From Dokdonia sp. (GTDB taxonomy: Bacteria > Bacteroidota > Bacteroidia > Flavobacteriales > Flavobacteriaceae): a stretch of 61,078 nt of DNA. The position numbers and the translations under genes were made by a program. Below are positions 4,848 to 60,660 of this stretch, piece after piece (the stretch's first letter is position 1; each line of letters begins with the position of its first letter). Under the pieces are notes generated by a model. It was not told where the DNA came from, did not search any database, and was given only the letters and a program-made list of their open reading frames with translations. The DNA lies in assembly GCA_020630915.1 (NCBI GenBank), contig JAHDIF010000013.1:1-61078 (forward strand). Direction: 5' to 3'.

Positions 4848-4861
4848 GCTTTCGCGAAAGC
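4848..4861. repeat. Iterated palindrome, exact copy
   Basis: GCTTTCGCGAAAGC in the accB-accC spacer. The accC frame is open through it (giving CAFAKAG), which makes the accC start look further upstream than it should be. Confidence 0.9.
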
Positions 4862-4895
4862 GGGTACAATAAATTTCAATTTAAAACAGTATACT

Positions 4896-6239
4896 ATGTT
4901 TAAGAAGATACTAATAGCAAATAGGGGAGAGATCGCCTTAAGAGTGATACGTACCTGTAGAGAAATGGGTATAAAAACTGTAGCCGTATACTCAAAGGCA
5001 GATGAAGAAAGTCTACATGTAAAATTTGCAGATGAAGCCGTATGTATAGGACCAGCACCTAGTAGCGAGTCTTACCTTAAAATGGCAAATATTATTGCTG
5101 CCGCTGAGATAACCAATGCAGATGCAATTCATCCGGGTTATGGATTCTTATCTGAAAACGCAAAGTTTTCTAAAATCTGTGAAGAGCACGATATTAAGTT
5201 TATTGGAGCTAGCGCAGAGATGATCTCAAAAATGGGAGATAAGGCAACTGCAAAGGCTACAATGAAAGCTGCTGGAGTACCGTGCGTCCCTGGATCTGAA
5301 GGGATTATTGAAGATTTTGACCAATGCAAGCAGCTGGCTTTGGAGGTGGGATACCCAGTCATGCTTAAAGCGACTGCTGGAGGTGGTGGTAAAGGTATGA
5401 GAGCCGTATGGGCAGAAGAAGACTTATTGAAAGCTTGGGAAAGCGCGAGACAAGAGTCTGCAGCTGCTTTTGGTAATGACGGTATGTACATGGAAAAACT
5501 CATAGAAGAGCCACGTCATATAGAAATACAAGTAATAGGAGATAGTAACGGAAAAGCGTGCCATCTTTCTGAGAGAGACTGCTCAGTACAACGTCGTCAC
5601 CAGAAACTTACGGAGGAGACACCATCTCCTTTTATGACAGATGAGTTGCGTGAAGCAATGGGTAATGCGGCCGTAAAGGCGGCAGAATTCATTAAATACG
5701 AGGGGGCAGGGACAGTAGAATTTCTTGTAGATAAGCATCGTAACTTCTATTTTATGGAGATGAACACTCGTATACAAGTAGAGCATCCTATTACTGAACA
5801 AGTAGTAGATTATGACCTCATACGAGAGCAGATACTAGTTGCAGCTGGAATCCCTATCTCTGGAAAGAATTACTATCCACAATTACATTCGATAGAGTGT
5901 AGGATAAATGCAGAGGATCCTTACAATGACTTTAGACCTTCGCCAGGACGTATAACAAATTTACATGCCCCTGGTGGTCATGGAGTTCGTATAGATACCC
6001 ACGTGTATAGTGGATATATGATTCCACCTAATTATGACTCCATGATTGCAAAGCTTATTACCACAGCTCAGACAAGAGAAGAGGCAATAAGCAAAATGAA
6101 ACGAGCACTAGACGAGTTTGTAATAGAAGGAATTAACACAACGATTCCTTTTCATCGTCAATTAATGGATCATCCAGATTATGTGGCTGGTAATTACACT
6201 ACAAAGTTTATGGAAGATTTCGAAATGGAAAAGGCTTAG
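4896..6239 (+). CDS. accC: Biotin carboxylase of acetyl-CoA carboxylase
   Basis: AccC uses ATP and bicarbonate to carboxylate the biotin on AccB. The protein (447 residues) starts [17 protein letters not shown], the invariant family start; an in-frame ATG at 4833 is rejected because the extra 21 residues come partly from the inserted palindrome. The ATP-grasp fold is shown by [37 protein letters not shown] and [15 protein letters not shown], and the C-terminal biotin carboxylase domain by ECRINAEDP and [18 protein letters not shown]. It is the last gene of the fabH-accB-accC operon and is followed by a terminator at 6261. Confidence 0.96.
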
Positions 6240-6260
6240 TTATCTAAGTTGATTTAATAA

Positions 6261-6290
6261 AAAAAACCTGCTCTACAGCAGGTTTTTTTT
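6261..6290. terminator. Bidirectional terminator between accC and the kinase gene
   Basis: CCTGCT and AGCAGG pair around a 4-base loop with an A-run on the left and a T-run on the right, so it can stop both the accC transcript and the convergent minus-strand transcript. Confidence 0.8.
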
Positions 6291-6330
6291 GTTGTTTAAT
6301 GTTATGGGTAACCTACTATTTTAGTTTCTT

Positions 6331-6945
6331 CTAAAAAAGTCCGTGCAATTCTGCGTCAATACGATTAATGATACCTCCAAGGTCTTCAGGGTTATCTACA
6401 AAATTAATGTTGTCTACATCTATGATTAGTAGTTTTCCTTTGTCATAACCGTGTATCCAAGCCTCATAGCGCTCATTAAGGCGACTTAGGTATTCAATAC
6501 TAATAGAGTTTTCATATTCTCGCCCACGTTTGTGTATTTGCGATACCAGATTGGGAATAGAACTGCGCAGGTAAATCATTAAGTCCGGAGCATCTACTAC
6601 GCTTTCCATAAGATCAAATAAAGATTTATAGTTATTGTAATCCCTATTTGTTAACAACCCCATGGCATGCAGGTTAGGGGCAAATATAAATGCATCTTCA
6701 TAAATAGTTCTATCTTGAATAATACTTTTTTTACTATTTCTGATTTCTAATAGTTGTCTAAATCTACTATTTAAAAAATATACTTGAAGATTAAAAGACC
6801 ATCGCTCCATCTCATTATAGAAATCGTCTAGATATGGATTATCTACTACGTCCTCATATTGCGGAGTCCATTTAAAATGCTTCGCAAGAAGCTTTGTGAG
6901 GGTGGTTTTTCCAGCGCCTATATTACCAGCAATCGCAATATGCAT
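6331..6945 (-). CDS. Deoxynucleoside kinase
   Basis: This 204-residue protein belongs to the deoxyadenosine/deoxyguanosine kinase family, which phosphorylates salvaged deoxynucleosides. The P-loop GNIGAGKTT is at residues 7-15. DRTIYEDAFIFA corresponds to the family's DRS/ERS region that contacts substrate and metal, and RGREYENSISIEYLSRL resembles the Arg-rich LID. Which deoxynucleoside it prefers cannot be told from sequence alone. It lies 10 bases downstream of the exported protein gene at 6956, so the two are probably one transcript. Confidence 0.88.
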   Translation of the reverse strand: MHIAIAGNIGAGKTTLTKLLAKHFKWTPQYEDVVDNPYLDDFYNEMERWSFNLQVYFLNSRFRQLLEIRNSKKSIIQDRTIYEDAFIFAPNLHAMGLLTNRDYNNYKSLFDLMESVVDAPDLMIYLRSSIPNLVSQIHKRGREYENSISIEYLSRLNERYEAWIHGYDKGKLLIIDVDNINFVDNPEDLGGIINRIDAELHGLF

Positions 6946-6955
6946 GAACAGTTAT

Positions 6956-7741
6956 TTAGTTTGGTTTGATTGTAAAGGCCATTAGATTTTGACCATTGTA
7001 AATATAAAGGATTTCACCTATCAATGAAAACTCTTGCACAGTATTTTGACTAATTCTTAGCTTCTTGAAAGAACTACCGTTAATTGGTTTTATATAAAAG
7101 TCATTATCTTTTTTAGCAATTAGTATTTTTTGATTTTGAGCAATAGTTTCAAACTGCCTGGGATTCTTTTCCACTTGGATTATAGTACCATAAATATTGT
7201 AGGTAATAAATTCTGTAGGAGTTTGTAACCAGCAAAAATTAAAATTGCTTGTATATGTATTGGGTATTTGTTCTAGAGGAGGAAATTCTAACACTACTTT
7301 GTTAAGGCGATAGTCAAAAAGTTCAAGTTGTTGTAAATCAGAATTAAAAATCCATAAGCGACGGTCATTTGCCGTGGTGGCCATGCTTACATTTCTAAAA
7401 TTATCTATAGTGGAGAATTCTATTCGAGTAATCTCGTTAAGGGTATTGTCTAAAATTACAACAGTATTGGATTGTTTGTAAAACACGGTGATTTTTAGTG
7501 GATTCAATAGGTCTACATAGGTAATAGGGCCTAGGTTAAGAGCTGCAAATTCGTATTGGTTTTGTTGGGATTTTGACTTATAGAGTGTACGGTCAGATGT
7601 GTAATAGATGTTAGCAAATTTATCTGTCCCTATAAAGGTTTGCGCATTTAATTCTTGTGATTTTAGTAAAATGGCTTCATATTCCTGAGCATATGAAGAG
7701 AGGCTTAGAATTAAAAAGAGTATGATGTGCAAGTATTTCAT
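6956..7741 (-). CDS. Exported protein of unknown function, beta-propeller-like
   Basis: The 261-residue protein starts with a signal peptide (MKYLHIILFLILSLSSYAQ, cut after about residue 18). The rest alternates short beta-type stretches with turns, for example KFANIYYTSDRTLYKSK, DNTLNEITRIEFS, NSDLQQLELFDYRLNKVVLEF and GEILYIYNGQNLMAF, which looks like blades of a propeller. No catalytic motif, lipobox or sorting domain is visible, so it is likely periplasmic. It heads a two-gene unit with the deoxynucleoside kinase; a functional link is not evident. Confidence 0.6.
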   Translation of the reverse strand: MKYLHIILFLILSLSSYAQEYEAILLKSQELNAQTFIGTDKFANIYYTSDRTLYKSKSQQNQYEFAALNLGPITYVDLLNPLKITVFYKQSNTVVILDNTLNEITRIEFSTIDNFRNVSMATTANDRRLWIFNSDLQQLELFDYRLNKVVLEFPPLEQIPNTYTSNFNFCWLQTPTEFITYNIYGTIIQVEKNPRQFETIAQNQKILIAKKDNDFYIKPINGSSFKKLRISQNTVQEFSLIGEILYIYNGQNLMAFTIKPN

Positions 7742-7775
7742 GAATGAACAAATTACAAAAATCTTGCCTTAGTAC

Positions 7776-7789
7776 GCTTTCGCGAAAGC
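7776..7789. repeat. Iterated palindrome, exact copy
   Basis: GCTTTCGCGAAAGC flanked by GTAC on the left, in the divergent spacer between the exported protein gene and dnaG. Confidence 0.9.
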
Positions 7790-7848: not shown

Positions 7849-9816
7849 TTGATTTCAAAAGAAACCATAGATAAAGTTTTTGAAACTGCTCGAGTAGAGG
7901 AGGTGATAGGGGATTTTGTACAACTCAAAAAATCTGGGTCTAATTATAAAGGACTCTCTCCTTTTTCTGATGAGCGTACCCCTAGTTTTATGGTATCTCC
8001 TGTAAAACAGATCTGGAAGGATTTTTCCAGTGGAAAAGGAGGAAATGCAGTTGCTTTTTTAATGGAGCACGAGCACTTTACCTACCCAGAAGCGATTAAG
8101 TACTTAGCAAAAAAGTACAATATTGAGGTGGATGAAACGGAGCAAACAGATGAGCAAAAAGAAGCAGCAAATGAGAGAGAGAGTTTGTATTTAGTGAGTG
8201 AGTATGCTCGCGATTACTACCATAGTACGCTGTTAAAATCTGAACAAGGGAAGGCCATAGGTGGTACTTATTTTAAGGAGCGTGGTTTTACTGAGGAGAC
8301 GGTAAAGAAGTTTGAGCTTGGGTACAATCCGGACCAATGGGATGCCTTTACAAGTGAAGCACTGCGCAAGGGATATAAACTTGAGTTTTTGCAAAAAACG
8401 GGATTGTCTATTGTAAAAGAAGAAAGACAATTTGATCGATTTAAGGGAAGAGTAATGTTTCCTATTCATTCTATGAGTGGTAGAGTCCTTGGTTTTGGAG
8501 GGCGTATCTTAGATAGTAGTAAAAAGGCGGCAAAATATCTTAATTCTCCAGAAAGTGATATTTACCATAAAAGCAAAGTTCTATATGGTATTTACTATGC
8601 TAAAAAGGCTATAGCTAAGGAGGATAATTGTTTTTTGGTGGAAGGATATACAGACGTGATCCAGATGTATCAGACAGGTATAGAAAATGTGGTTTCTTCT
8701 TCGGGAACTGCACTTACACCAGAACAAATACGACTGATTAATAGGCTTACTAAAAACATAACCGTTCTTTTTGATGGAGATGCGGCAGGGCAACGTGCGG
8801 CTATTAGAGGTATAGATTTAATCTTAGAACAGGGAATGAATGTAAAAGTTTGTTCCTTTCCGGAAGGAGAGGATCCGGATAGCTTTTCGCGAAAGCATTC
8901 TCAAGAAGAAATACGCTCTTATTTTTCTGAAAATGCCAAAGACTTCATACAGTATAAAGCAAATTTATTAGTTGAAGAAGCTGCTGGAGATCCTGTAAAG
9001 AAAGCGGGGACAGTGAGAGATATGGTAGAGAGTATTTCAAAAATACCAGACACCATTAAGCGCGAGATTTACATACAAGAATGTTCTCGTATTATGGAAA
9101 TATCTGAGGATGTATTGTATAATACATTAGCTCAAATATTCAATAAAAATAAAAAGGAGGCAGGTAAAAAGAGCAAGCCTTCTTCTTCAGAACCATTTAC
9201 TGTAGTGCCTAATGAGCTTGCGTCTAGTGTGGAGAAGGTAGACGTACTTTATGAATTAGAAAAAAAATTGATAGAGGCATTGTTACTATATGGTAATGTA
9301 GAGGAAGAGTTTGAAGATCTTGTGCTCAAAGAGACAGAAGAGGGTGTTCTAGAATTAGAACCTATAGTGCAAAAGGCAAAAGTATTTGAAAAAATTTATT
9401 TAGATCTTCAAGACGACGAGGTAGCGTTCACAAATAATTTATTCAAGTCATTATATTCTAAAATAATTAATCATTTACATAAAGAAAATGAGCTTAAAAT
9501 TAAGAATCTTGTGAACGAGCTAGACCCAGAGGAGTCATCAGAAATATCAAACATTGTTCTAAATGATGAGAAGTATCTACTCCACAGATGGGAGACTAAG
9601 GAGGTGTATGTAAAACAAAAAGATAAGAGTGTCGCCCAGTTGGTAACAGAGACCGTGTTAAGTTTACGAAAATACCTGATCACACAAAAAATAGAAGAAT
9701 TGTCTCAACAAACTAAAGAATCTACTTCTAATAAAGATATTCTTCTCGATATCTTGGACTATCAATCCCTTAATACATTACTGGGTACAAAATTAGGAAG
9801 AGTGTTGTCTGTTTAG
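7849..9816 (+). CDS. dnaG: DNA primase, zinc ligands missing
   Basis: DnaG makes the RNA primers for replication. The protein (655 residues) starts at TTG and keeps the three-part layout. The N-terminal CHC2-type domain reads GLSPFSDERTPSF and later WKDFSSGKGGN: the normal Cys-His-Cys-Cys ligands are Ser37, Ser40, Asp58 and Ser61, so no zinc can be bound there. The TOPRIM catalytic core is intact (VEGYTDVIQMYQTG, VLFDGDAAGQRAA). The C-terminal part should bind the helicase. An altered palindrome at 8883 encodes SFSRKH. Its stop overlaps the convergent regulator gene by 4 bases. Confidence 0.94.
   Translation: MISKETIDKVFETARVEEVIGDFVQLKKSGSNYKGLSPFSDERTPSFMVSPVKQIWKDFSSGKGGNAVAFLMEHEHFTYPEAIKYLAKKYNIEVDETEQTDEQKEAANERESLYLVSEYARDYYHSTLLKSEQGKAIGGTYFKERGFTEETVKKFELGYNPDQWDAFTSEALRKGYKLEFLQKTGLSIVKEERQFDRFKGRVMFPIHSMSGRVLGFGGRILDSSKKAAKYLNSPESDIYHKSKVLYGIYYAKKAIAKEDNCFLVEGYTDVIQMYQTGIENVVSSSGTALTPEQIRLINRLTKNITVLFDGDAAGQRAAIRGIDLILEQGMNVKVCSFPEGEDPDSFSRKHSQEEIRSYFSENAKDFIQYKANLLVEEAAGDPVKKAGTVRDMVESISKIPDTIKREIYIQECSRIMEISEDVLYNTLAQIFNKNKKEAGKKSKPSSSEPFTVVPNELASSVEKVDVLYELEKKLIEALLLYGNVEEEFEDLVLKETEEGVLELEPIVQKAKVFEKIYLDLQDDEVAFTNNLFKSLYSKIINHLHKENELKIKNLVNELDPEESSEISNIVLNDEKYLLHRWETKEVYVKQKDKSVAQLVTETVLSLRKYLITQKIEELSQQTKESTSNKDILLDILDYQSLNTLLGTKLGRVLSV
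8883..8896. repeat. Iterated palindrome, altered copy in dnaG
   Basis: CTTTTCGCGAAAGC has one extra T relative to the exact element. It is read in frame as SFSRKH within DnaG. Confidence 0.6.
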
Positions 9817-11453: not shown

Positions 11454-12407
11454 ATGAAGAATTTTTTATGGTCTCTTGTAATATTATTGAGTATTCTTTC
11501 TTGTGGAGAAGAAAGTAAGGTAAAGCCAGAAATTAGAGAACTCCCTATAGATTTTGAATTGAAAAGATTTGATGTAGCACTCGCAAATGCTAGCATAAGT
11601 GATATTGGTAGTCTAAGAAAGGAGTACCCTTATTTCTTTTCTAAACGATATGATGAGCCTTATTGGGAAGAAAAAATACAAGATACTATACAGCAAGAAA
11701 TACAAGAGCAGGTAGCGAAGACTTTTAGTGATATAAATGATGTAGAATATAGATTAGAATTGCTATTTAAGCACGTTTCCTATTATTTCCCAGAAGTTAC
11801 TGTACCTAAAACTATCACAGTAGCAACAGATGTAGATTATAAAAACAAAGTTATTTTAACAGACAGTTTGTTGTTTGTTTCTCTATCCACTTATTTAGGG
11901 TCTGATCATTATTTTTATGATGGTATTGCTCGATTTCATTCTAAAAATTTCAGGAAAGATCAGATAGTTGTTGATGTGGCACACGCTTTCGCGAAAGCAA
12001 AAACACCACCACCTACATCCTTACAATTTATAGATCATCTCATCTATGAAGGGAAGATACTTTATGTAATGGGGCAATTATTACCAGAAGAGCCTTTACA
12101 CGAAATACTATCTTATCAAGAAGACGAACTGGTGTTTGTTCAAGAAAATGAGGTGAATATATGGGAGTACTTTGTGTCTAAAGAGGTATTATTTAGTACA
12201 GATAAAAAGTTGCTTTCACGTTTTGTAGACCCTGCTCCTTTCTCTAAATTTTATTTAGACTTAGATAATGAGACTCCAGGAAGAATAGGGAGATATATAG
12301 GTTACAAAATGGTTGCGTCTTATATGGCTAAAAATACTACACCTCTCAAACTGATGCTTATAGAGGATGCAGAGACGCTTTTTAATAATTCAAAATACAA
12401 ACCCTAA
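11454..12407 (+). CDS. gldB: Gliding motility lipoprotein GldB
   Basis: GldB is an outer-membrane-associated lipoprotein needed for gliding in Flavobacterium; loss of it stops motility, and its exact part in the T9SS-powered machinery is unsettled. The chosen start (MKNFLWSLVILLSILSCGEE) gives a lipoprotein signal with lipobox LSILSC, so Cys17 would be lipidated. The open frame extends 44 codons upstream without a signal-like sequence. Family-typical stretches are LKRFDVALANAS, FFSKRYDEPYW, FIDHLIYEGKILYVM and GRIGRYIGYKMVASYM. An exact palindrome at 11985 encodes AFAKA within HAFAKAKT. gldC follows after 2 bases. Confidence 0.92.
   Translation: MKNFLWSLVILLSILSCGEESKVKPEIRELPIDFELKRFDVALANASISDIGSLRKEYPYFFSKRYDEPYWEEKIQDTIQQEIQEQVAKTFSDINDVEYRLELLFKHVSYYFPEVTVPKTITVATDVDYKNKVILTDSLLFVSLSTYLGSDHYFYDGIARFHSKNFRKDQIVVDVAHAFAKAKTPPPTSLQFIDHLIYEGKILYVMGQLLPEEPLHEILSYQEDELVFVQENEVNIWEYFVSKEVLFSTDKKLLSRFVDPAPFSKFYLDLDNETPGRIGRYIGYKMVASYMAKNTTPLKLMLIEDAETLFNNSKYKP
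11985..11998. repeat. Iterated palindrome, exact copy in gldB
   Basis: GCTTTCGCGAAAGC is read in frame as AFAKA inside GldB. Confidence 0.9.
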
Positions 12408-14679: not shown

Positions 14680-14693
14680 GCTTTCGCGAAAGC
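14680..14693. repeat. Iterated palindrome, exact copy
   Basis: GCTTTCGCGAAAGC about 150 bases before mraZ, next to a run of eleven or more T, in the control region of the dcw cluster. Confidence 0.9.
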
Positions 14694-16513: not shown

Positions 16514-18505
16514 ATGGCCACCACTGAGAAAAACATATTAAACCGATTGTACTTTGTAGCAGGCTTTATGTTTCTCTTTGCAATTCTTGTGGTTGTAAAG
16601 CTCGTAGATATCCAATTTTTTAAAGGAGATAAGTATCGTGAGCTGGCGGTTACTAGTACAGAGAAAATGACAACTATTCCTGCAACAAGAGGTAATCTTT
16701 ATGCAGGCGATGGTAGTTTGCTGGCTACCTCCGTAATTAAGTATGATGTACGTTGGGATGCGTTATCACCTTCAGAAGAAAATTTTAGTGAGAATATAGT
16801 GGCATTAAGTCAAGGGCTTTCTGAAGTTTTGGGGAAGTCTGCCTCATATTATGAGCAACGACTTCGTAAAGCAAGAGCTACCCAAAACAGATACCTTTTT
16901 GTTGCGCGCAATCTAGATTATCAAGAATATATCAAGATAAAGTCGCTTCCACTTTTTAATAAAGGACAGTATAAAGGTGGAATAATTATCGAAAACCATA
17001 CAGAGCGCGAGCATCCGTTAGATAAGATGGCAGAGCGTACGGTGGGATATGAGCGCAAAGATGATAGTGGTTACTACACTCGTGTGGGGCTTGAAGGGGC
17101 TTATGGTCACTACTTAAGAGGCAAAGAAGGACGAAGGTTAAAACAAAAAATTGCCAAAGGCGAATGGAAACCTTTAGGTGTAGGCAATATTGTCGAGCCA
17201 CGTGATGGGTATGATGTAATCTCTACTATAGATGTGAATATTCAGGATATAGCGCACCATGCTTTGCTTACTAATCTGGAAAAGTTTAAGGCAGATCACG
17301 GATGTGTTGTGGTTATGGAGACTAAGACAGGTGAAATTAAGGCTATCTCCAATCTTGGTCGCACTAAAGAAGGTAAATATTATGAGCGTCTTAATTATGC
17401 TGTAGGTGAAAGTCACGAGCCAGGGTCTACGTTTAAGTTAATGTCTATGGTGGCGGCACTAGAAGATAAAGTAATAGATACGAGTACCGTTTTTGATACA
17501 GAAGGAGGTCGTGTAAAATTTTACGATCGTACGGTAATAGATTCCAGAAGAGGTGGGTATGGTAAGATAAGTGCAGCAAAGGCTTTTGAGGTGAGTAGTA
17601 ATACGGCTTTCGCCAAAATGATTCAGGAAAACTACAAAGATGATCCTAAACGTTTTGTGAAGCGACTTTTTAATATGGGTCTTAATGATCAACTAGGCGT
17701 AGAAATTAAAGGAGAAGGAAAACCAAAATTTCCATATCCAGGAGATGAGGATTGGTATGGTACGACATTGCCTTGGATGGCATTCGGGTATGGGGTGCAA
17801 CTTACACCCTTGCAAACTCTTACATTTTACAATGCAATTGCAAATGATGGCGAAATGGTAAAGCCTAAGTTTATTAAGGAAGTAAAAGAATGGGATGTTA
17901 CGGTCGAGAAATTCGATAAAGAAGTGATTAATCCGAGAGTAGCTTCTCAAAGCACTATAGATGCTGTTCAAAAGATGATGGAAAACACGGTAAAGCGTGG
18001 TACAGCAAAAAATATTTACAGCCCAGAGTTTTCTATGGCAGGAAAAACAGGAACCTGCCAGATAGATTACTGGATAGAAAAAGGACAATATATAGCTTCT
18101 TTTGCAGGGTACTTTCCAGCAGACGATCCTAAATATTCTTGCATCGTGGTAGTACATAAACCAGACAAGTCTATTGGATATTATGGTAGTACGGTAGCGG
18201 CTCCCATATTCAAGCAGATTGCTCAAAAAATATATTCGGATACGCCCGTGATAGATGACGTTGCTTTGCCTAAAAACAATGGGGCGGCAATCGAAAAAGA
18301 TTACCAAGACTATTATACTTCAGTTAATAAGACCTATTCGGTCGTGCCTAATGTGGCAGGTATGAGCGGGATGGATGCGGTAGCACTGTTAGAGAATTTG
18401 GGGTTAAAAGTACGCTTTCGCGGAAGCGGAAAAGTCACCTCTCAATCTATTAAGTCAGGCGAAAAGTTAGTTAAGAACCAAACCATCACTTTAGAGTTAT
18501 CATGA
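16514..18505 (+). CDS. ftsI: Division-specific peptidoglycan transpeptidase (PBP3 type) with PASTA domain
   Basis: FtsI cross-links septal peptidoglycan. The 663-residue protein has an N-terminal membrane anchor (LYFVAGFMFLFAILVVVKLV), the PBP dimerisation domain (ATRGNLYAGDGSLLA), and a transpeptidase domain with the three active-site motifs: GSTFKLMS (SxxK), SSNTAF (SxN) and GKTGTC (KTG). A C-terminal PASTA domain follows (VPNVAGMSGMDAVALL and on). An altered palindrome at 18414 encodes RFRGS inside the PASTA domain. It overlaps murE by 4 bases (ATGA). Confidence 0.95.
   Translation: MATTEKNILNRLYFVAGFMFLFAILVVVKLVDIQFFKGDKYRELAVTSTEKMTTIPATRGNLYAGDGSLLATSVIKYDVRWDALSPSEENFSENIVALSQGLSEVLGKSASYYEQRLRKARATQNRYLFVARNLDYQEYIKIKSLPLFNKGQYKGGIIIENHTEREHPLDKMAERTVGYERKDDSGYYTRVGLEGAYGHYLRGKEGRRLKQKIAKGEWKPLGVGNIVEPRDGYDVISTIDVNIQDIAHHALLTNLEKFKADHGCVVVMETKTGEIKAISNLGRTKEGKYYERLNYAVGESHEPGSTFKLMSMVAALEDKVIDTSTVFDTEGGRVKFYDRTVIDSRRGGYGKISAAKAFEVSSNTAFAKMIQENYKDDPKRFVKRLFNMGLNDQLGVEIKGEGKPKFPYPGDEDWYGTTLPWMAFGYGVQLTPLQTLTFYNAIANDGEMVKPKFIKEVKEWDVTVEKFDKEVINPRVASQSTIDAVQKMMENTVKRGTAKNIYSPEFSMAGKTGTCQIDYWIEKGQYIASFAGYFPADDPKYSCIVVVHKPDKSIGYYGSTVAAPIFKQIAQKIYSDTPVIDDVALPKNNGAAIEKDYQDYYTSVNKTYSVVPNVAGMSGMDAVALLENLGLKVRFRGSGKVTSQSIKSGEKLVKNQTITLELS
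18414..18427. repeat. Iterated palindrome, altered copy in ftsI
   Basis: GCTTTCGCGGAAGC has one change (A to G) from the exact element, preceded by TAC. It encodes RFRGS in the PASTA domain of FtsI. Confidence 0.75.
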
Positions 18506-21204: not shown

Positions 21205-21218
21205 GCTTTCGCGAAAGC
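21205..21218. repeat. Iterated palindrome, exact copy
   Basis: GCTTTCGCGAAAGC with GTAC on the left fills most of the 27-base mraY-murD spacer. Confidence 0.9.
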
Positions 21219-22587: not shown

Positions 22588-22601
22588 GCTTTCGCGGAAG
22601 T
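22588..22601. repeat. Iterated palindrome, altered copy
   Basis: GCTTTCGCGGAAGT carries two changes from the exact element and is preceded by ATAC, in the murD-ftsW spacer. Confidence 0.7.
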
Positions 22602-24904: not shown

Positions 24905-26253
24905 AGGATTTAAAACACATAGAAAACGTTTATTTTATCGGTATCGGTGGTATCGGGATGAGTGCTCTAGCGCGCTATTTTCATACTAACGGGAAGAGAG
25001 TTTCGGGGTATGACAAGACACCTAGTTCCATAACGCAAGAACTTCAGGCGCTTGGCATGGAGGTGCATTTTAACGATCGAGGGACAACCATTATAGATAC
25101 TTATCCTAATAAAGAAGAAACATTAGTGGTCTATACACCTGCTATTCCTAGAGATTTTGTGGAGTTGGTACGCTTTCGCGAAAGCGGTTATCACCTTAAA
25201 AAAAGGGCTGAGGTTCTTGGGTTGATTGCCAATCAAGTATACACACTGGCGGTTGCAGGTACCCACGGAAAGACCACTACTTCAAGTATTCTAGGCCATC
25301 TTCTTGCCGAAACGGGAGCTCCTGTCACTGCTTTTATAGGGGGCATTACAAATAATTATAATAGCAATCTTATTCAAAAAGGAAATGAGGTAGTCGTGGT
25401 TGAGGCAGATGAGTTTGATCGTTCTTTCTTACAACTGCAACCACAAATAGCGTGTATAACGTCTATGGATCCAGATCATCTGGATATCTATGAAAATGAA
25501 GCCGATTTTGAGGCTACTTTTAAACAGTTTGCCACAAAAGTGCCGGCCGAGAACTTGTTTATTAAAAATGGGCTGCCTCTAAAAGGGAATACCGTTGGAA
25601 TTAACGATAACGCACAGTATAGTGCGCAAAATATTACCATAGAAAATGGTCACTACGTCTTTGATTTTAAACATCCAGAAGGCGTAGTAAAGAAGATGCA
25701 ATTTAACCTACCTGGATGGCACAATTTGTTTAATGCAGTTACAGCCTTAGGAATGGCAATGGTATATGGTTCCCCGACCGCCTTGCTTCCTGAGGCTTTA
25801 CGCACATATGCGGGTGTGAACAGACGTTTTAGTTATCGTGTTAATCAAGAAGACCTAGTTCTTATTGATGATTATGCACATCATCCAACAGAAATAGCAG
25901 CAGTCCATCAGAGTGTTAGAGAGATGTACCCAGAGGAAGAAGTGCTAGCTGTTTTTCAACCGCATTTGTTTAGTCGCACACAAGATTTTATGGAGGGTTT
26001 TGCTGCTGAGTTGAGCAGATTTGATGAGGTTCTATTGTTAGATATTTATCCAGCAAGAGAGCTCCCGATAGATGGTGTTACTAGCGCTGCTTTACTAGAG
26101 CAAATAAGTGTCGAAAATAAAGCACTAATCAAAAAAGAAAGTTTGAGTAAAATTATACAAGAAGCGAGACAAAAAGTGATAGTAATGATGGGTGCTGGAG
26201 ATATAGGAGTAGAGATTGAAAGAATAACCAAAGAGCTTACATATGCGAGTTAA
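24901..26253 (+). CDS. murC: UDP-N-acetylmuramate:L-alanine ligase
   Basis: MurC adds L-alanine to UDP-MurNAc, the first peptide step. The 450-residue protein starts at TTG overlapping the murG stop. Motifs: [16 protein letters not shown] (UDP site), [13 protein letters not shown] (ATP site), [29 protein letters not shown] and [12 protein letters not shown], with [14 protein letters not shown] in the last domain. An exact palindrome at 25172 encodes RFRES (in [10 protein letters not shown]). It overlaps ftsQ by 11 bases. Confidence 0.96.
25172..25185. repeat. Iterated palindrome, exact copy in murC
   Basis: GCTTTCGCGAAAGC with GTAC on the left, read in frame as RFRES in MurC. Confidence 0.9.
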
Positions 26254-28360: not shown

Positions 28361-28397
28361 GCTTTCGCGAACCTGCCCGACGGCAGGCCGGAGCGTA
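28361..28397. repeat. Iterated palindrome interrupted by a GC-rich inverted repeat
   Basis: The left part GCTTTCGCGA (28361-28370) is intact. It is followed by ACCTGCCCGACGGCAGGCC, in which CCTGCC and GGCAGG pair, and then GGAGCGTAC, which looks like the displaced right arm. It lies in the ftsA-ftsZ spacer and is far more GC-rich than its surroundings. Confidence 0.7.
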
Positions 28398-28430
28398 CAT
28401 ATAAAATAACAAGGGGCTAAAATCAAAAAT

Positions 28431-30459: not shown

Positions 30460-30479
30460 TACGCTTTCGCGAAAGCGTA
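30460..30479. repeat. Iterated palindrome, exact copy extended to 20 bp
   Basis: TACGCTTTCGCGAAAGCGTA is a perfect 20-bp palindrome (14-bp core at 30463-30476), between ftsZ and yqeY. Confidence 0.9.
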
Positions 30480-39139: not shown

Positions 39140-39153
39140 GCTTTCGCGAAAGC
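39140..39153. repeat. Iterated palindrome, exact copy
   Basis: GCTTTCGCGAAAGC with GTAC on the left fills most of the 23-base gap between the convergent methyltransferase and DUF6048 genes, where a terminator would be expected. Confidence 0.9.
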
Positions 39154-40348: not shown

Positions 40349-41761
40349 CTATCGTTTCTCAAGCAATACCACATTTTCTACGTGGTGGGTTTGCGGGAAC
40401 ATGTCTACCGGTTGAACTTTAGTTACTTTATATTGTGCATCCATTAAAGCCAGATCTCGTGCTTGAGTTGCACTATTGCAACTTACATAAACTATTTTTT
40501 CTGGAGCTATGTTTAAGATTTGATTAACCACATCTGCGTGCATGCCATCTCGTGGAGGATCTGTGATAATAACATCAGGTACTCCGTGGGTGTTTATAAA
40601 ATCAGTATTAAAAACCTTTTTCATATCTCCTACAAAGAACTCGGCATTTGTGATGTTATTGTGTAGCGCATTTGCCTTAGCAGCTTCTATGGCGTCTGGT
40701 ACGGCTTCTACACCTATTACTTTGCCTGCTTGTTTTGCTATAAACTGTGCAATGGTTCCGGTACCTGTGTACAAATCGTATACAAGTTCCTTACCCGTAA
40801 GTCCTGCAAAGTCACGCGTTATTTTATACAGCTCGTATGCTTGTGCAGAGTTTGTCTGGTAAAAAGACTTAGCGTTAATCTTAAATTGTAAGCCTTCCAT
40901 TTCTTCAAAAATATGATCGCGACCGTCATAGCATATTACTTCTTGATCGTAGATCGTGTCGTTTCCTTTAGAGTTAATTACATAAAGAAGCGAAGTGATT
41001 TCTGGGAAACTACTCTTTAAATAGTCTAATAGTAAAATTCTGTTCTTACTATCTTCCTTAAAAAATTGCACTAATACCATAAGCTCTCCGGTAGAAGAGG
41101 TGCGTATCATTAATGTACGTAACAATCCTTCTTGATTACGTGCATTGTAAAAAGGCATTTGATGCTTTGTTGCAAATTCCTTAATACCATTTCTTATGGC
41201 ATTACTAGGGTCTGCCTGTAGATGACATTTTTGAATATCTAAAATTTTGTCCCACATTCCTGCGATATGAAACCCTAGTGCATTGCGATCTTCTATAACT
41301 TCATCGCTGCGTATCTGTTCTAGCGTGAGCCATTTACTGTCCGAAAATCCGAATTCCATTTTATTACGATAGAAATATTGCTGGGCACTGCCTGCGATAG
41401 GAGTCACTTCCGGAAGTTCTATTTTGCCTAGTCGTGTGAGGTTATTTACTACTTCTCTTTCTTTATATTCTAGCTGGTATTTGTAGTCCATATGTTGCCA
41501 CTTACAGCCTCCACATACTTCAAAATGCTGGCATTGTGGTTGGGTACGCTTTCGCGAAAGCGTATGCACCTTAATCGCATTTGCCTCATAATAAGACTTG
41601 CGTTTTTTTGTAGTCTGTACATCTACCACATCACCAGGAACGGCGTTATTGATAAATACAACACGACCATCTGGAGCGTGTGCAATGGCTTTTCCTTTTG
41701 CACCTGCATCTGTAACCTCTAATTCTGTAAAAATCTTACGATTTTGTTTGCGTCTTGACAT
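40349..41761 (-). CDS. rlmD: 23S rRNA (uracil(1939)-C(5))-methyltransferase
   Basis: RlmD (RumA) makes m5U in 23S rRNA. The 470-residue protein has an N-terminal TRAM domain (ELEVTDAGAKGKAIAHAPDG), a [4Fe-4S] site (CQHFEVCGGCKWQHM with a further Cys), SAM-binding VYDLYTGTGTIAQFIA, TDPPRDGMHADV and the catalytic Cys in IVYVSCNSATQARDL. An exact palindrome at 41548 encodes TLSRK (in VHTLSRKRTQ), next to the first iron-sulfur Cys. The open frame extends 32 codons past the chosen ATG (41761); the promoter at 41766 supports the shorter start. Confidence 0.94.
   Translation of the reverse strand: MSRRKQNRKIFTELEVTDAGAKGKAIAHAPDGRVVFINNAVPGDVVDVQTTKKRKSYYEANAIKVHTLSRKRTQPQCQHFEVCGGCKWQHMDYKYQLEYKEREVVNNLTRLGKIELPEVTPIAGSAQQYFYRNKMEFGFSDSKWLTLEQIRSDEVIEDRNALGFHIAGMWDKILDIQKCHLQADPSNAIRNGIKEFATKHQMPFYNARNQEGLLRTLMIRTSSTGELMVLVQFFKEDSKNRILLLDYLKSSFPEITSLLYVINSKGNDTIYDQEVICYDGRDHIFEEMEGLQFKINAKSFYQTNSAQAYELYKITRDFAGLTGKELVYDLYTGTGTIAQFIAKQAGKVIGVEAVPDAIEAAKANALHNNITNAEFFVGDMKKVFNTDFINTHGVPDVIITDPPRDGMHADVVNQILNIAPEKIVYVSCNSATQARDLALMDAQYKVTKVQPVDMFPQTHHVENVVLLEKR
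41545..41564. repeat. Iterated palindrome, exact copy extended to 20 bp, in rlmD
   Basis: TACGCTTTCGCGAAAGCGTA (core 41548-41561) is preceded by G, so GTAC lies on the left. It is read on the minus strand in frame as TLSRK. Confidence 0.9.
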
Positions 41762-46947: not shown

Positions 46948-47508
46948 ATGAGATTTACTTTTAAAATGAATGATAGTGTACAGGCGTTAGATGATGATTT
47001 TGAGGGTGTCATTGTTGCAAAAGATGGTGATATGGTAGACGTAGAAGGTATTGATGGGTTTGTGGTACGCTTTCGCGAAAGCGAACTTATCCCAGCAATT
47101 TCGACCATAGATGCTCATAAATTGAGTAGTGTATCACCTGCGGTTATTACTGAAAAAGAAGCTGCTAGTAAACGACCAAATTTTGTGCAAGCTTCAAAAA
47201 AGAAAAAGAAACAAATACCTCCTATGGAAGTAGATCTTCATATAGGTAAATTGGTTAGAAGTCCACAAGGGATGTCTAACTACGAGATACTTAATTTGCA
47301 ATTAGATACGGCAAAACGACAGTTGGAATTTGCAAAAAATAAACGCATACAGCGTATAGTTTTTATACACGGTGTAGGTGAAGGTGTTTTAAAAGAAGAA
47401 CTCAATTATCTTTTAAGACGTTACGAAAATCTTAAATTTTTTGATGCAGATTATCAAAAATATGGAGTAGGGGCGACCGAAGTATACTTTTTACAGAAAG
47501 GGCTTTAG
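46948..47508 (+). CDS. Smr-domain protein, MutS2-related
   Basis: The protein (186 residues from the ATG at 46948) has an N-terminal beta-barrel-like stretch (MNDSVQALDDDFEGVIVAKD, VDVEGIDGFVVRFRES), a basic linker (ASKKKKKQIP) and a C-terminal Smr nuclease-type domain: EVDLHIGKLV, LDTAKRQLEFAKNKR, VFIHGVGEGVLKEEL and LRRYENLKFFDADYQKYGVG. Smr domains occur at the end of MutS2 and as stand-alone proteins that nick DNA or RNA. An exact palindrome at 47069 encodes RFRES. The lipoprotein gene is convergent with a 5-base gap. Confidence 0.88.
   Translation: MRFTFKMNDSVQALDDDFEGVIVAKDGDMVDVEGIDGFVVRFRESELIPAISTIDAHKLSSVSPAVITEKEAASKRPNFVQASKKKKKQIPPMEVDLHIGKLVRSPQGMSNYEILNLQLDTAKRQLEFAKNKRIQRIVFIHGVGEGVLKEELNYLLRRYENLKFFDADYQKYGVGATEVYFLQKGL
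47069..47082. repeat. Iterated palindrome, exact copy in the Smr gene
   Basis: GCTTTCGCGAAAGC with GTAC on the left, read in frame as RFRES (VVRFRESEL). Confidence 0.9.
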
Positions 47509-48464: not shown

Positions 48465-48478
48465 GCTTTCGCGAAAAA
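48465..48478. repeat. Iterated palindrome, degraded copy
   Basis: GCTTTCGCGAAAAA keeps the left arm and core but has lost the right GC pair. It lies upstream of the cysteine desulfurase promoter. Confidence 0.65.
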
Positions 48479-53909: not shown

Positions 53910-53923
53910 GCTTTCGCGAAAGC
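53910..53923. repeat. Iterated palindrome, exact copy
   Basis: GCTTTCGCGAAAGC between the end of the DUF4249 gene and the start of the M23 gene on the minus strand. Confidence 0.9.
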
Positions 53924-54855: not shown

Positions 54856-57234
54856 TTAAAATTTAAAGTTATAGGTAACCGCTGGTATAATTCCAAAAAT
54901 GGACGTTCTAATCGCTTCGTTAGTGCCAGTTTCTACATTTTGTCTAAAGTTAATAGAGGCCGCATTCATTCTATTATACACATTGTATACACTAAAAATC
55001 CACTCAGATTGCCAGTTACGATCTTTATTTTTACGTGGTGTAAGTGTTGCGCTTAGGTCTAACCTGTGGTAGGAGGGAAGGCGTTGCTCATTACGAGGTC
55101 CATAGGTAGGAATGGTGATCCCTTGAAATTGAAACTGGCCTACAGGAAAGTTAGTAGGTTGTCCCGTTTGAAATAAAAAGTTACTCCCAAAACGCCATTT
55201 TTCATTAAGGTCGTAGGATAGATTCATAGAGATATCATGCGTTTTGTCATAAGGTGTATTGTACCATTCTCCTTGGTTAATTCCTATTTCATTTTCATTC
55301 CTTCCAGGAGTACGCTGTTCTGACTTAGATAGTGTATATGCTAGAAACCCTTTAAGCGCTCCATCATTTTTACGCAATAAGAACTCTGCACCGTAAGCGC
55401 GTGCCTCTCCTTGCAGGATTACTTCTTCGATCTCATTGTTTGCTATAAGTTGGGCGCCGTCTATGTAGTCAATACGACCATCTATGTCTTTGTAAAAAAT
55501 TTCTGTTTCTAGGGTAAATTCGCTTTCGCGAAAGCTAAAATTCTTAAAATACCCGAGCGCATATTGATCTAATATTTGTGGTTTTGCAAAAGGACCACTA
55601 GGTGTCCATACGTCTAGCGGAGTGGGAGAACTCGTGTTTGATAGTAAATGTAAGTATTGCACAAGTCTTGTATAACTGCCTTTAAAAGAAGTGTCATCAT
55701 TAAGAGCGTAAGCCGCCGCTAGCCTAGGCTCAAGACTATTGTAAGTGGCTAGCTTATCACTACGTGATCTCGATGTGTCTACACCTATAGGGTCTGCACT
55801 TTGATAAATAAGTAAGAAAGGATCAAAAGTTACAGGTTGATTATCTCTATAAATAGTTACTTCGTCTTGTCCCAAACGAGTGAAATTGCTGTATCGTAAA
55901 CCGTATTGTAGCGTGAGGTCTTGTGTTATTTTATGTTCTATATCTACGTAGGCAGCAAATTCATTTGCAAACTTTTTAATGAGTTGTTCTTCTACAATAC
56001 CAGAATCCGGACCGTTAGGAGATATTTTTCCTGGATTGAAGGTGTAGTACAGATTGTTAATCCCTGAGTAGATTTTCATCTTTTCATTAAGGTAGTAGGT
56101 AAGGTCGTATTTGAGGTTAATGTTAGAGATGCCAGAATTCCACTCAAAACCTACAAAGTCCAGATCTAAACCGTAAAAGTAGTCGCTGTAAATCAGGGAA
56201 GCATTAGAAAATAACTTGTCTGAAAAAATATGATTCCAGCGCAAGTTACCTAACGCGTTTCCGTACACATTTTCAAAACTATCTTGTATACTGAACAAAT
56301 CTCTTCCAAAATATCCTGAGAGATACAAACTATTGTTTTCATTAATTTTAAAGTTAATTTTTGTGTTTAGATCATAAAACAGGGCTTTATTATCAATATC
56401 AAATAGTGGTAAAAAAAGATGTGCATAAGACGCTCTTCCACCTATTAAAAATGCGGCTTTGTTCTCAATAATCGGCCCTTCTACTAGAAGTCTGCTAGCG
56501 ACTGCTCCTATGCCGCCGTTTACTTTAAATTTCTTACTATTTCCTTCTTTCTGGTAGATGTCTAGAACAGAAGAAACACGACCTCCATATCTTGCAGGTA
56601 TTCCTCCTTTGTATAATTTAAGATCTTTAACGGCATCTGGATTAAATACTGAGAAAAAGCCAAAAAGGTGTGACGAGTTAAAGATCGTAGCTTCATCTAG
56701 CAATATCAAATTTTGGTCCGCCGCACCACCACGCACGTTAAATCCTGAAGCTCCTTCGCCAGCACTTGTGACACCAGGTAGGAGTAAAATAGCTTTGACC
56801 ACGTCTGCCTCGCCTAAAACGACAGGAATATTTTTGATAGTTTCTGCCGTAAGTGTATTAATACTCATTTGCGGTTTTCTAATCTTAACACGCTCTACGT
56901 TTTCTTCTATGATTACTTCGTCTAGGGATTGTGTTTGTAACGATAATGAAAAATTACGTCTGATATTTTTATCCAGAGTAATTGTCTCTACAATGTCTTT
57001 ATACCCTAGATAGCTTAGTTGTACTTTATAAGTTCCTTCTGGTAGTGTGATAGAATAAAACCCATATGAATTTGTAGTAACTCCATTAGAGATTTCTGGA
57101 AAAAGAATATTGACCCCTATGAGTGTTTCATTACTTTCTATGTCTGTAATGGTTCCGCTTAGGGTATATTTTTCTTGAGCTAAGAGGTAAGAGCCTATTC
57201 CCAGGAATAAAAGGAGTAAAAGATATTTTTTCAT
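54856..57234 (-). CDS. TonB-dependent receptor (paired with DUF4249)
   Basis: The 792-residue receptor has a signal peptide (YLLLLLFLGIGSYLLAQ), a carboxypeptidase-regulatory-like domain (LSGTITDIESNETLIGVNIL), a plug (LGEADVVKAILLLPGVTSAG, NVRGGAADQNLILLDEATIF, KLYKGGIPARYGGRVSSVLD) and a barrel ending in IFGIIPAVTYNFKF, with a terminal Phe as in barrels. EIFYKDIDGRIDYIDGAQ in the middle is typical. Its cargo is unknown. An exact palindrome at 55522 encodes SFRES within NFSFRESEFT. It is read with the DUF4249 gene. Confidence 0.93.
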   Translation of the reverse strand: MKKYLLLLLFLGIGSYLLAQEKYTLSGTITDIESNETLIGVNILFPEISNGVTTNSYGFYSITLPEGTYKVQLSYLGYKDIVETITLDKNIRRNFSLSLQTQSLDEVIIEENVERVKIRKPQMSINTLTAETIKNIPVVLGEADVVKAILLLPGVTSAGEGASGFNVRGGAADQNLILLDEATIFNSSHLFGFFSVFNPDAVKDLKLYKGGIPARYGGRVSSVLDIYQKEGNSKKFKVNGGIGAVASRLLVEGPIIENKAAFLIGGRASYAHLFLPLFDIDNKALFYDLNTKINFKINENNSLYLSGYFGRDLFSIQDSFENVYGNALGNLRWNHIFSDKLFSNASLIYSDYFYGLDLDFVGFEWNSGISNINLKYDLTYYLNEKMKIYSGINNLYYTFNPGKISPNGPDSGIVEEQLIKKFANEFAAYVDIEHKITQDLTLQYGLRYSNFTRLGQDEVTIYRDNQPVTFDPFLLIYQSADPIGVDTSRSRSDKLATYNSLEPRLAAAYALNDDTSFKGSYTRLVQYLHLLSNTSSPTPLDVWTPSGPFAKPQILDQYALGYFKNFSFRESEFTLETEIFYKDIDGRIDYIDGAQLIANNEIEEVILQGEARAYGAEFLLRKNDGALKGFLAYTLSKSEQRTPGRNENEIGINQGEWYNTPYDKTHDISMNLSYDLNEKWRFGSNFLFQTGQPTNFPVGQFQFQGITIPTYGPRNEQRLPSYHRLDLSATLTPRKNKDRNWQSEWIFSVYNVYNRMNAASINFRQNVETGTNEAIRTSIFGIIPAVTYNFKF
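55522..55535. repeat. Iterated palindrome, exact copy in the TonB receptor gene
   Basis: GCTTTCGCGAAAGC, read on the minus strand in frame as SFRES. Confidence 0.9.
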
Positions 57235-57370: not shown

Positions 57371-57384
57371 GCTTTCGCGAAAGC
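57371..57384. repeat. Iterated palindrome, exact copy
   Basis: GCTTTCGCGAAAGC between the icd stop codon and its terminator, so it should lie in the 3' untranslated part of the icd mRNA. Confidence 0.9.
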
Positions 57385-57393
57385 GGTTACAAC

Positions 57394-59661
<2,268 letters not shown>

Positions 59662-59674
59662 ATTTTAAGGATGG

Positions 59675-59682
59675 CAAATATA
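59675..59682 (-). promoter_or_regulatory. Candidate -7 box for icd
   Basis: The minus strand reads TATATTTG, matching TAnnTTTG, just downstream of the hairpin that ends the proposed structured RNA. Confidence 0.45.
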
Positions 59683-59740
59683 ACTAATACGAGCGATTTA
59701 TTATAATCAATAATACCTTGAATGGTAGAATTAAAAGATC

Positions 59741-59895: not shown

Positions 59896-59971
59896 GATCA
59901 TTCTTAAGATTGTTCGATTTGAAAAAGTTACGTTTTATAAATCTAGCTTGTGCAGCGCTTCTTGTTAGATG

Positions 59972-59998
59972 TTGACCTAAAGAAATGTAATACTTTTG
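59972..59998 (+). promoter_or_regulatory. Promoter-like site without a downstream gene
   Basis: TTG (59972-59974), 16 bases and TACTTTTG (59991-59998) fit both elements of the Bacteroidetes promoter on the plus strand. No reading frame follows before the rplS terminator at 60104, so it could drive a small RNA of about 100 bases or be chance. Confidence 0.35.
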
Positions 59999-60103
59999 CT
60001 AATTCTCTAACCTAAAATTACAACAAAAGACAACTCCATTGGCAAAATATAAATATTTAATTATCAAACGGTTATGAACTTAGGATATAAACAATTGTGC
60101 ATA

Positions 60104-60130
60104 AAAAAAAGCCTTTCGTGAGAAAGGCTT
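60104..60130 (-). terminator. Terminator after rplS
   Basis: AGCCTTTC (60111-60118) and GAAAGGCT (60123-60130) pair with a 4-base loop; on the minus strand the stem is followed by eight T. Confidence 0.88.
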
Positions 60131-60151
60131 TGTACTTGTAATTTGGATTGG

Positions 60152-60502
60152 TTACGAACGCTTTTCTTTAATTCTAGCTTTCTTACCGGTAAGTCCTCTA
60201 AAGTAATAAATACGAGCTCTACGTACGCTACCTCTTTTGTTAACTTCTATTTTTTGTATTGCAGGTAAATTTAACGGGAATACACGTTCCACACCTACAG
60301 TACCAGACATTTTTCTAATTGTGAAGGTTTGCGTTCTTCCAGTTCCTCTTAATTGGATTACAACTCCTCTAAAGAACTGTGTACGGCTCTTTTCACCTTC
60401 CTTAATTTCGTAATACACTGTGATTGTGTCACCAGCGCTAAATTCTGGGAATTCATTTTTTGTAATGAATTCGTCTTGTACAAATTTTACTAAATCTTCC
60501 AT
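60152..60502 (-). CDS. rplS: 50S ribosomal protein L19
   Basis: L19 sits at the interface of the large and small ribosomal subunits. The 116-residue protein has FSAGDTITVYYEIKEGEKSR, QFFRGVVIQLRGTGRTQTFT, IRKMSGTVGVERVFPLNLP and KRGSVRRARIYYFRGLTGKK, all diagnostic. It has a well-formed promoter at 60575-60604 and a leader of about 70 bases that could be regulatory. It stands alone here, without trmD or rpsP. Confidence 0.97.
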   Translation of the reverse strand: MEDLVKFVQDEFITKNEFPEFSAGDTITVYYEIKEGEKSRTQFFRGVVIQLRGTGRTQTFTIRKMSGTVGVERVFPLNLPAIQKIEVNKRGSVRRARIYYFRGLTGKKARIKEKRS

Positions 60503-60572
60503 GATAATGGATTTTGTTACGTTTTGCCTTTAGATAACATTCACGATGATCGTCAGAGGTTAACTAAGCGGG
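60503..60572 (-). promoter_or_regulatory. rplS leader, possible ribosomal protein leader
   Basis: The leader begins about 3 bases after the -7 box and includes the small palindrome ACGATCATCGT on the minus strand. L19 leaders have been proposed for Flavobacteria (Rfam), but I cannot check the match. Confidence 0.3.
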
Positions 60573-60574
60573 TG

Positions 60575-60604
60575 CAAAAATAAGATATTCTTATTGATTT
60601 GCAA
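60575..60604 (-). promoter_or_regulatory. rplS promoter
   Basis: On the minus strand TTG (60604-60602), 19 bases and TATTTTTG (60582-60575) fit the Bacteroidetes consensus and its spacing. This is the best promoter match in the window. Confidence 0.65.
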
Positions 60605-60622
60605 TTAATTTAAAGGTAGTTT

Positions 60623-60660
60623 TTGTGAGTACGCTTTCGCGAAAGCGATTTTACTCACAA
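60623..60660. repeat. Iterated palindrome, exact copy, inside a longer inverted repeat
   Basis: The 16-bp palindrome CGCTTTCGCGAAAGCG (60632-60647) is itself flanked by TTGTGAGTA on the left and TACTCACAA on the right, so the whole 38 bp can form one long hairpin with a 4-base bulge. It lies between rpsT and the rplS promoter. Confidence 0.85.

What the first reader, a model, noticed from the sequence alone, without database searches (positions are those of the whole stretch)
4848..60646. A 14-bp palindrome, GCTTTCGCGAAAGC, is iterated through the whole window
I count 16 exact copies (cores at 4848, 7776, 11985, 14680, 21205, 25172, 30463, 32229, 37412, 39140, 41548, 47069, 53910, 55522, 57371, 60633) and 5 altered ones (8883, 18414, 22588, 28361, 48465), about one per 3 kb. 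One exact 14-mer is expected far less than once in 61 kb. Nine exact copies are between genes and seven inside genes. The element is not a terminator, because most copies lack a T-run and many lie in reading frames. In concept it is like HIP1 of cyanobacteria. Possible roles are methyltransferase or nucleoid-protein target, DNA uptake signal, or repair/recombination site.
Basis: partly seen in the sequence, partly recalled or inferred. Interest (0 to 1): 0.82.

Follow-up and report, generated by a model that had tools for sequence, protein, structure and literature searches.

The report
Evenly spaced 50-bp genome-wide DNA mark
Hundreds of copies of one mirror-symmetric DNA word, each set in a hidden 50-letter pattern and rarely closer than a thousand letters to the next, mark the chromosomes of the marine bacteria Dokdonia and Nonlabens; this looks like a chromosome-wide address label, but the protein that reads it is unknown.

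Summary
GCTTTCGCGAAAGC occurs 16 times in the window and 685 times in its 2.97-Mb genome; the other 17 genomes of its genus searched have 369-905. Contig lengths identify the genus as Dokdonia. Nonlabens and one unnamed genus also carry hundreds; other Flavobacteriaceae sampled have 0-19.

New:
1. The unit is a symmetric ~50-bp element: 14-mer plus 18 nt per side, C-poor from -18 to -3, with a sharp outer edge.
2. Copies exclude each other: pair density is 4% of random below 600 bp.
3. Sites persist at 65-85% DNA identity: 58 of 79 exact, against 26 of 632 control 14-mers.
4. Placement ignores gene orientation.
5. No one of four methyltransferase families is in all carriers tested.
6. In 8 of 13 copy-poor genomes examined, copies sit on related metal-efflux islands.

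Best reading: a two-fold protein-binding mark, most likely an uptake-type self-recognition signal (about 0.4). Chromosome architecture is a close rival. No reader protein was found.

The parts
4848..4861 (.). exact core, upstream of the biotin carboxylase-like gene (ATG at 4896); the 18 nt on each side belong to the element, here and in all rows below
7776..7789 (.). exact core, between divergent ORFs
8883..8896 (.). altered core, 2 mismatches, in ORF 7849-9816
11985..11998 (.). exact core inside the gldB-like gene
14680..14693 (.). exact core, intergenic
18414..18427 (.). altered core, 1 mismatch, in ORF 16514-18505
21205..21218 (.). exact core in the short gap between ORFs 19965-21200 and 21228-22565
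22588..22601 (.). altered core, 2 mismatches, intergenic
25172..25185 (.). exact core inside the murC-like gene (Mur ligase domains); exact in 8 of 16 same-genus loci aligned
28361..28371 (+). left part of a copy (GCTTTCGCGAA) split by a 20-nt insert with a hairpin at 28372-28391
30463..30476 (.). exact core, intergenic
32229..32242 (.). exact core inside a peptidase M90-like gene
37412..37425 (.). exact core inside a ZIP transporter-like gene
39140..39153 (.). exact core between convergent ORFs
41548..41561 (.). exact core inside an RNA uracil-5-methyltransferase-like gene
47069..47082 (.). exact core inside an Smr-domain gene
48465..48478 (.). altered core, GCTTTCGCGAAAAA, intergenic; this right-arm variant recurs in G006 of the genus
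53910..53923 (.). exact core, intergenic
55522..55535 (.). exact core inside a TonB-dependent receptor-like gene
57371..57384 (.). exact core, intergenic
60633..60646 (.). exact core, intergenic

Best explanation
Shown: a two-fold symmetric element of about 50 bp (14-bp exact core plus 18 nt of position-dependent sequence on each side, C-poor from -18 to -3) occurs at hundreds of places per chromosome. Copies are seldom within 1 kb of each other, ignore the direction of transcription, show no more than a weak link to replication strand, and individual sites persist between species. Inferred: it is the binding site of a dimeric DNA-binding protein or receptor, each half reading about 25 bp. The role I think most likely is a self-recognition (uptake-type) mark: DNA fragments carrying one copy are preferred on uptake or recombination, which spreads and repairs copies. 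A second copy within one fragment length adds nothing, which gives the exclusion zone. The reader protein is not identified and uptake has not been tested.
For: Over-specification: core 29.3 bits plus 2 x 4.3 bits of flank against about 12.1 bits needed to find 685 sites. A short exact core with softer flanks is what the passages I read describe for the Haemophilus uptake signal (PMC7811141). Over-representation falls with mismatch load in all three genomes sampled, as reported for uptake sequences in PMC1939737. Presence in 17 of 17 other genomes of the genus. Site persistence 58 of 79 against 26 of 632. No terminator or promoter bias; all three reading frames used. No more than weak strand polarity. 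Exclusion zone below 1-1.5 kb. comEC present in 29 of 29 genomes. Competence exists in the family, with preference for own DNA in Riemerella columbina (PMC7965970 passages). In 8 of 13 copy-poor genomes examined, copies ride on a related efflux island.
Against: I found no report of competence in these genera: only one paper holds 'Dokdonia' and 'natural transformation' (listing seen, title on another bacterium), and Nonlabens was not searched this way. Flavobacterium johnsoniae was not competent in the same study that showed R. columbina is (abstract start). comEC is equally present in motif-poor genera. The known uptake words are not palindromic (recalled). [quoted passage not shown] It occurs in viral contigs with the full flank pattern. 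No receptor candidate was found.
Confidence: 0.4

Rival explanations
1. Chromosome-architecture site: a dimeric nucleoid protein binds hundreds of spaced sites and organises or tethers the whole chromosome. Selection, not uptake drive, keeps the sites and their spacing.
For: Two-fold symmetry with independent half-sites; sharp 50-bp extent; exclusion zone and no clustering; copies in 39 of 40 spaced stretches of two single-contig chromosomes; present on a prophage-like contig at similar spacing.
Against: About 26 bits more specific than needed to find the sites. No bound protein known; only one ParB_N match in each of the 11 carrier genomes scanned, which argues against an extra Noc-like paralogue.
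Confidence: 0.3
2. HIP1-like palindrome coupled to a DNA methyltransferase or restriction system that reads TCGCGA or a nearby word.
For: Palindromic, exact, genome-wide, as in HIP1 (start of abstract and passages of PMC4390886). PF02384 enzymes are in 11 of 12 carriers.
Against: PF01555 gave no match in 7 of 11 carriers, PF00145 none in 5 of 11, PF02086 none in 6 of 12, PF02384 none in G246. An enzyme reading a short word would not explain a 50-bp footprint. Other families were not tested.
Confidence: 0.07
3. Recombination or repair hotspot (Chi-like), palindromic so that it works from both sides, with GT-rich 18-nt tracts that favour RecA loading.
For: One copy per about 4.3 kb; G/T-rich 5' flanks on both strands.
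Against: Chi words are short and asymmetric (recalled); 38 bits of specificity is far more. RecBCD/AddAB genes were not compared.
Confidence: 0.08
4. REP-like or mobile hairpin element spread by a transposase.
For: The core with GTAC arms can fold as a 9-bp hairpin, -10 kcal/mol.
Against: Beyond the core the flanks share composition and position preferences, not sequence, and left and right flanks vary independently, so copies do not look like homologous insertions. The core alone folds no better than shuffles. REP-type transposases were not searched.
Confidence: 0.05

Closest known systems
HIP1 (GCGATCGC) of cyanobacteria
   Same: Exact palindrome iterated genome-wide, in genes and between genes; function unsettled
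   Different: 14-bp core in a 50-bp symmetric element, about 1-kb exclusion, different phylum, and no single methyltransferase family of four tested in every carrier
Uptake sequences USS (Haemophilus) and DUS (Neisseria)
   Same: Exact core with softer flanks, genome-wide, over-representation falling with mismatches, lineage-specific watermark
   Different: Palindromic, longer, sparser (about 1 per 4.3 kb), strongly spaced, in Bacteroidota; uptake untested
parS / Noc-binding / matS chromosome-organising sites
   Same: Palindromic protein-binding site with chromosome-wide role (recalled)
   Different: Many more copies (recalled counts), spread over the whole chromosome, far more exact, 50-bp extent; no extra ParB homologue in 11 carriers
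Chi sites
   Same: Similar density, about 1 per 4-5 kb in E. coli (recalled)
   Different: Symmetric, 14-50 bp, at most weak strand polarity

Membership tests
HIP1-type highly iterated palindrome | Palindrome far above expectation over the whole genome | tested here: met
   685 copies, reversed control 0
HIP1-type highly iterated palindrome | A methyltransferase common to carriers (families PF01555, PF00145, PF02086, PF02384) | tested here: not met
   No family in every carrier: absent in 7 of 11, 5 of 11, 6 of 12 and 1 of 12; other families and recognition words not tested
DNA uptake sequence (USS/DUS) | Exact core over-represented, falling with mismatch load | tested here: met
   Observed/expected 1.5e5, 788, 33, 3.2, 1.2 for 0-4 mismatches in the own-genome sample, base-composition expectation
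DNA uptake sequence (USS/DUS) | Preferential uptake of DNA carrying it | not testable with these tools
   Needs transformation assays
DNA uptake sequence (USS/DUS) | Cognate receptor in carriers only | not tested
   Receptor unknown; comEC is in 29 of 29 genomes, rich and poor
Intrinsic terminator | Placed downstream of genes, hence in tandem and convergent gaps | tested here: not met
   89/33/21 sites in tandem/divergent/convergent gaps against 78895/28819/16892 bp
ParB/Noc-type site | Cognate extra ParB-like protein in carriers | tested here: not met
   One ParB_N match in each of 11 carriers
KOPS or strand-polar motif | Orientation follows replication | tested here: not met
   Core is palindromic; flank asymmetry correlates only weakly with GC skew, r 0.11, 329 sites
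REP / mobile repeat | Copies share sequence beyond the core | tested here: not met
   Flanks share composition and position preferences, not sequence; left/right identity as expected by chance, 188 sites
Chi site | Attenuates RecBCD/AddAB and stimulates recombination | not testable with these tools
   Bench assay needed

The most novel reading that the evidence does not exclude
A self-recognition mark of a new build: a two-fold symmetric, ~50-bp, self-excluding DNA element read by an unknown dimeric protein in marine Bacteroidota. It would serve natural DNA uptake or whole-chromosome organisation, and its exclusion length would record the effective DNA fragment or domain size in nature.
Probability: 0.5. 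Interest if true: 0.88.

Novelty: new variant of a known kind. Interest (0 to 1): 0.72.

Why it matters
What such iterated genomic words do is a long-standing open question (HIP1 is still unexplained), and I know of no uptake word shown in Bacteroidota (recalled; the searches named in the full report found none). Here the word is long, exact, evenly spaced and absent or rare in the relatives sampled, so binding, uptake and deletion tests have sharp yes/no outcomes in culturable marine bacteria. It may also trace DNA that left Dokdonia or Nonlabens: in 8 of 13 copy-poor genomes examined, copies lie on a related mobile-looking island.

Tried and rejected
Strand polarity: in the window GTAC lies on the same side of most copies (one search scored 14 of 16 one way, one the other, one tied). 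A full flank score gave 12 of 16 in the window and only a weak skew correlation over 329 sites. Rejected as a general feature.

ComEC and ParB trees (quick method, long branches warned of) do not reject one clade of all 11 carriers, AU p 0.549 and 0.288, so that claim is withdrawn. Between the two genera, though, aligned genic sites were not at shared positions: one copy lay close by, in another frame, in 17 alignments one way, and 0 of 16 the other.

Dialects: of 20 stretches asked for in other genera, 16 were full length. None showed an iterated word of this kind, but one (L338, G049) has GATGGTACCATC six times in 20 kb, which I did not follow up, and L323 (G023) has a parS-like word a few times.

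Reader protein: ParB, four methyltransferase families, ComEC, and a local screen for unusually similar proteins gave no candidate. That screen covered only part of each genome.

Failed controls: frequent 9-mers were only 8, with values like the motif's own and judged by me to be its pieces; 8-mers gave none (script error); 300 of 376 7-mers served. In the spacing test, the null preserves genic/intergenic class but not the lengths of individual gaps. The position lists are the first places that searches listed, not whole genomes.

Papers: PMC8034619 passages concern TTTCGCGAAA-type words absent from the human genome; not relevant.

Plasmid collection: neither the efflux gene nor a consensus-like 50-mer matched; in the phage collection the 50-mer gave only weak matches to its arms in four records.
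Full report
CHECK. The 14-mer GCTTTCGCGAAAGC is in the window 16 times, where 100 shuffles gave none. It is in the window's genome 685 times in 2,967,236 bases; the word read backwards gave none. No other 14-mer of real bases is as frequent in the 410-kb sample of the genome; the next in the list are shifted pieces of the same element.

WHO CARRIES IT. The 17 other same-genus genomes searched have 369-905 copies. So the genus is Dokdonia and g11 is Nonlabens; these names are inferred from lengths. Of 397 Flavobacteriaceae genomes, six have hundreds (two Dokdonia, three Nonlabens, and G246 of an unnamed genus with 408); 74 have 1-19 and 317 none. Of 395 genomes drawn from the phylum, those outside the family have at most one. 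Trees of ComEC and ParB (29 genomes, 11 carriers) do not reject one clade of carriers (AU p 0.549 and 0.288), so one origin is possible.

COPIES ELSEWHERE. In poor genera the listed copies often cluster, and a 933-bp spacing recurs. I fetched places in 13 of the 74 poor genomes. In 8 of the 13 (G134, G143, G157, G270, G392, G402, G160, G029) a related island of 10-16 kb is there, best stretches 73-95% identical to the reference in G270; in 5 it is not (G149, G405, G232, G158, G374). Genes of the island that I scanned are RND pumps, outer-membrane efflux proteins, a P-type ATPase and a cation-efflux protein. Its outer-membrane efflux protein in Altibacter is 95-98% identical to that of four Dokdonia genomes, with the same two copies 933 bp apart; other Dokdonia have more distant versions (60-85%), some without a copy, and several none. 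For scale, MurC of the window is 48-60% identical to that of motif-poor members of the family (Altibacter was not in that call). So recent transfer between Dokdonia and Altibacter is supported; direction is inferred. Flank scores of 26 named loci outside Dokdonia/Nonlabens (27 sites) were positive at 6 sites in 5 loci (Flavobacterium LPB0248, Altibacter, Aquimarina, a Cytophagaceae MAG, Subsaximicrobium) and negative at 21, which look like chance matches. Same-genus sites average +8.6 and random positions -10.5; the profile was trained on those same-genus sites.

ANATOMY. Aligning sites shows C depletion on the strand running towards the core out to position -18 on each side: in the own genome (91 sites) 6.8% C at -18..-5 against 15.8% at -40..-19; in Nonlabens (46 sites) 5.6% against 14.9%; in G246 (13 sites, GC-richer) 16.2% against 25.7%. 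Depletion runs from -18 to -3; at -2 C is back near background and at -1 C is the preferred base (75%). The outer edge is sharp: 326 of 2632 C at -22..-19 against 196 of 2632 at -18..-15, Fisher p 2e-9. Preferences in intergenic sites of the genus include A-15, T-13, T-7, A-5, T-3 (85%), A-2, C-1; genic copies show the same pattern more weakly at several positions. Left and right flanks match each other no more than chance (188 sites), so this looks like one half-site used twice, not a repeat copied whole. Information: core 29.3 bits plus 4.3 per flank (373 sites); 685 sites in this genome need about 12.1 bits.

PLACEMENT. In 68 stretches of 1.39 Mb (genes called by my own script), 326 sites: 174 genic, 152 intergenic, where coding is 87.2% of sequence. 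Intergenic sites follow gap length: 89 tandem, 33 divergent, 21 convergent (143 of 152 could be classed). Genic copies use all frames, the AFAKA frame most (107 of 174). Spacing is more even than random in 6 of 7 contig lists tested at p < 0.05; the seventh, G246 with 10 sites, p 0.14. Pair correlation: 0.04 below 600 bp, 0.24 at 600-1000, 0.50 at 1-1.5 kb, then 0.7-1.1. With genic/intergenic class kept, 9 gaps under 1 kb against 70 expected, lowest of 1000 simulations 53. Of 300 control 7-mers of similar count, the lowest value below 600 bp was 0.74.

CONSERVATION. In same-genus alignments of 65-85% identity, 58 of 79 motif sites are exact in the partner, against 26 of 632 neighbouring 14-mers; above 85%, 18 of 19 against 93 of 152. 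Pairs are not independent; 80 distinct query sites enter in all. Imperfect copies are few: exact against one-mismatch 92:23, 118:5 and 90:11 in three genomes. In G006 a right-arm variant, GCTTTCGCGAAAAT (19) or ...AAAAA (9), makes up 28 of 39 two-mismatch copies. Between Dokdonia and Nonlabens, aligned genic sites do not coincide (17 and 16 alignments; one copy close by in another frame). Against 16 motif-less stretches, 28 of 29 aligned places had nothing like it and 1 was within 3 mismatches.

MECHANISM. Shown: symmetry, extent, exclusion, persistence, indifference to transcription. Inferred: a dimeric reader, each half contacting about 25 bp. Two roles fit. Uptake-type self-recognition (0.40) explains the over-specification and the watermark-like presence throughout the genus; the exclusion zone would be the length of transforming DNA. 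Architecture (0.30) explains symmetry and spacing most directly. Against uptake: the one paper holding both Dokdonia and natural transformation is by its title about another bacterium (listing), ComEC is in all 29 genomes, a published statement says uptake words are not as even as compaction sites should be (PMC1939737 passages), and viral contigs carry the element: 33 of 54 sites in viral stretches under 45% GC have positive flank scores, some of them the same site seen twice, while none of the other 78 scored above 4. The Nonlabens phage P12024S has none. Methylation: PF01555 is without a match in 7 of 11 carriers, PF00145 in 5 of 11, PF02086 in 6 of 12, PF02384 in 1 of 12; no family is in all, PF02384 comes nearest, and other families were not tested.

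LITERATURE. The 14-mer is in no paper of the open library. TTTCGCGAAA is in 10 papers: listing seen, one read in passages. No paper holds Dokdonia, Nonlabens and palindrom- together. A broader search found 33 papers, 20 listed, none of the 20 holding either genus name. Further searches: (12 of 1,271 listed, none with Dokdonia). Read in passages: PMC4390886, PMC7965970, PMC5217627, PMC7811141, PMC1939737. Subscription papers and preprints were not searched, so novelty is provisional.

LIMITS. 

Noticed in passing
window 28361-28398; L251 (minus strand) 6622; L253 10909; L271 11443: A hairpin CCTGCC...GGCAGG (insert about 20 nt) has entered full or partial copies of the element at the same point (GCGAA^AGC). 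Of 7 such hairpins in 104 same-genus sequences, 5 lie within 30 nt of a motif piece. Possible site-specific mini-insert.
   Followed up: partly
L242 11412, L250 4433, L252 (minus) 3543, L255 (minus) 14529: A second recurrent insert, about 32 nt (ATCGA...GAGATTCACGA...GGAG), follows GCTTTCGCGAA in four places of the window's genome.
   Followed up: no
L375 11190-11300: In a second Altibacter efflux island, the motif at the start of the outer-membrane efflux gene is replaced by about 90 bp of other sequence.
   Followed up: no
L173, L143, L160, L156, L207, L234: Viral or prophage contigs carry the element with fitting flanks; L173 (head maturation protease, endolysin) has three copies 3.1-3.6 kb apart.
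   Followed up: partly
L314 1-20000 (G006): A 20-kb stretch without any copy holds three copies (one short) of a gene that looks like a group-II-intron reverse transcriptase; judged from its sequence, no database search.
   Followed up: no
L338 (G049): GATGGTACCATC occurs six times within 20 kb of another genus.
   Followed up: no
L285 2646-15677 (G017): A 4344-codon gene without any copy of the element.
   Followed up: no
window 60535-60562, minus strand: L19-Flavobacteria ribosomal leader (RF03130) lies close to the last motif copy.
   Followed up: no
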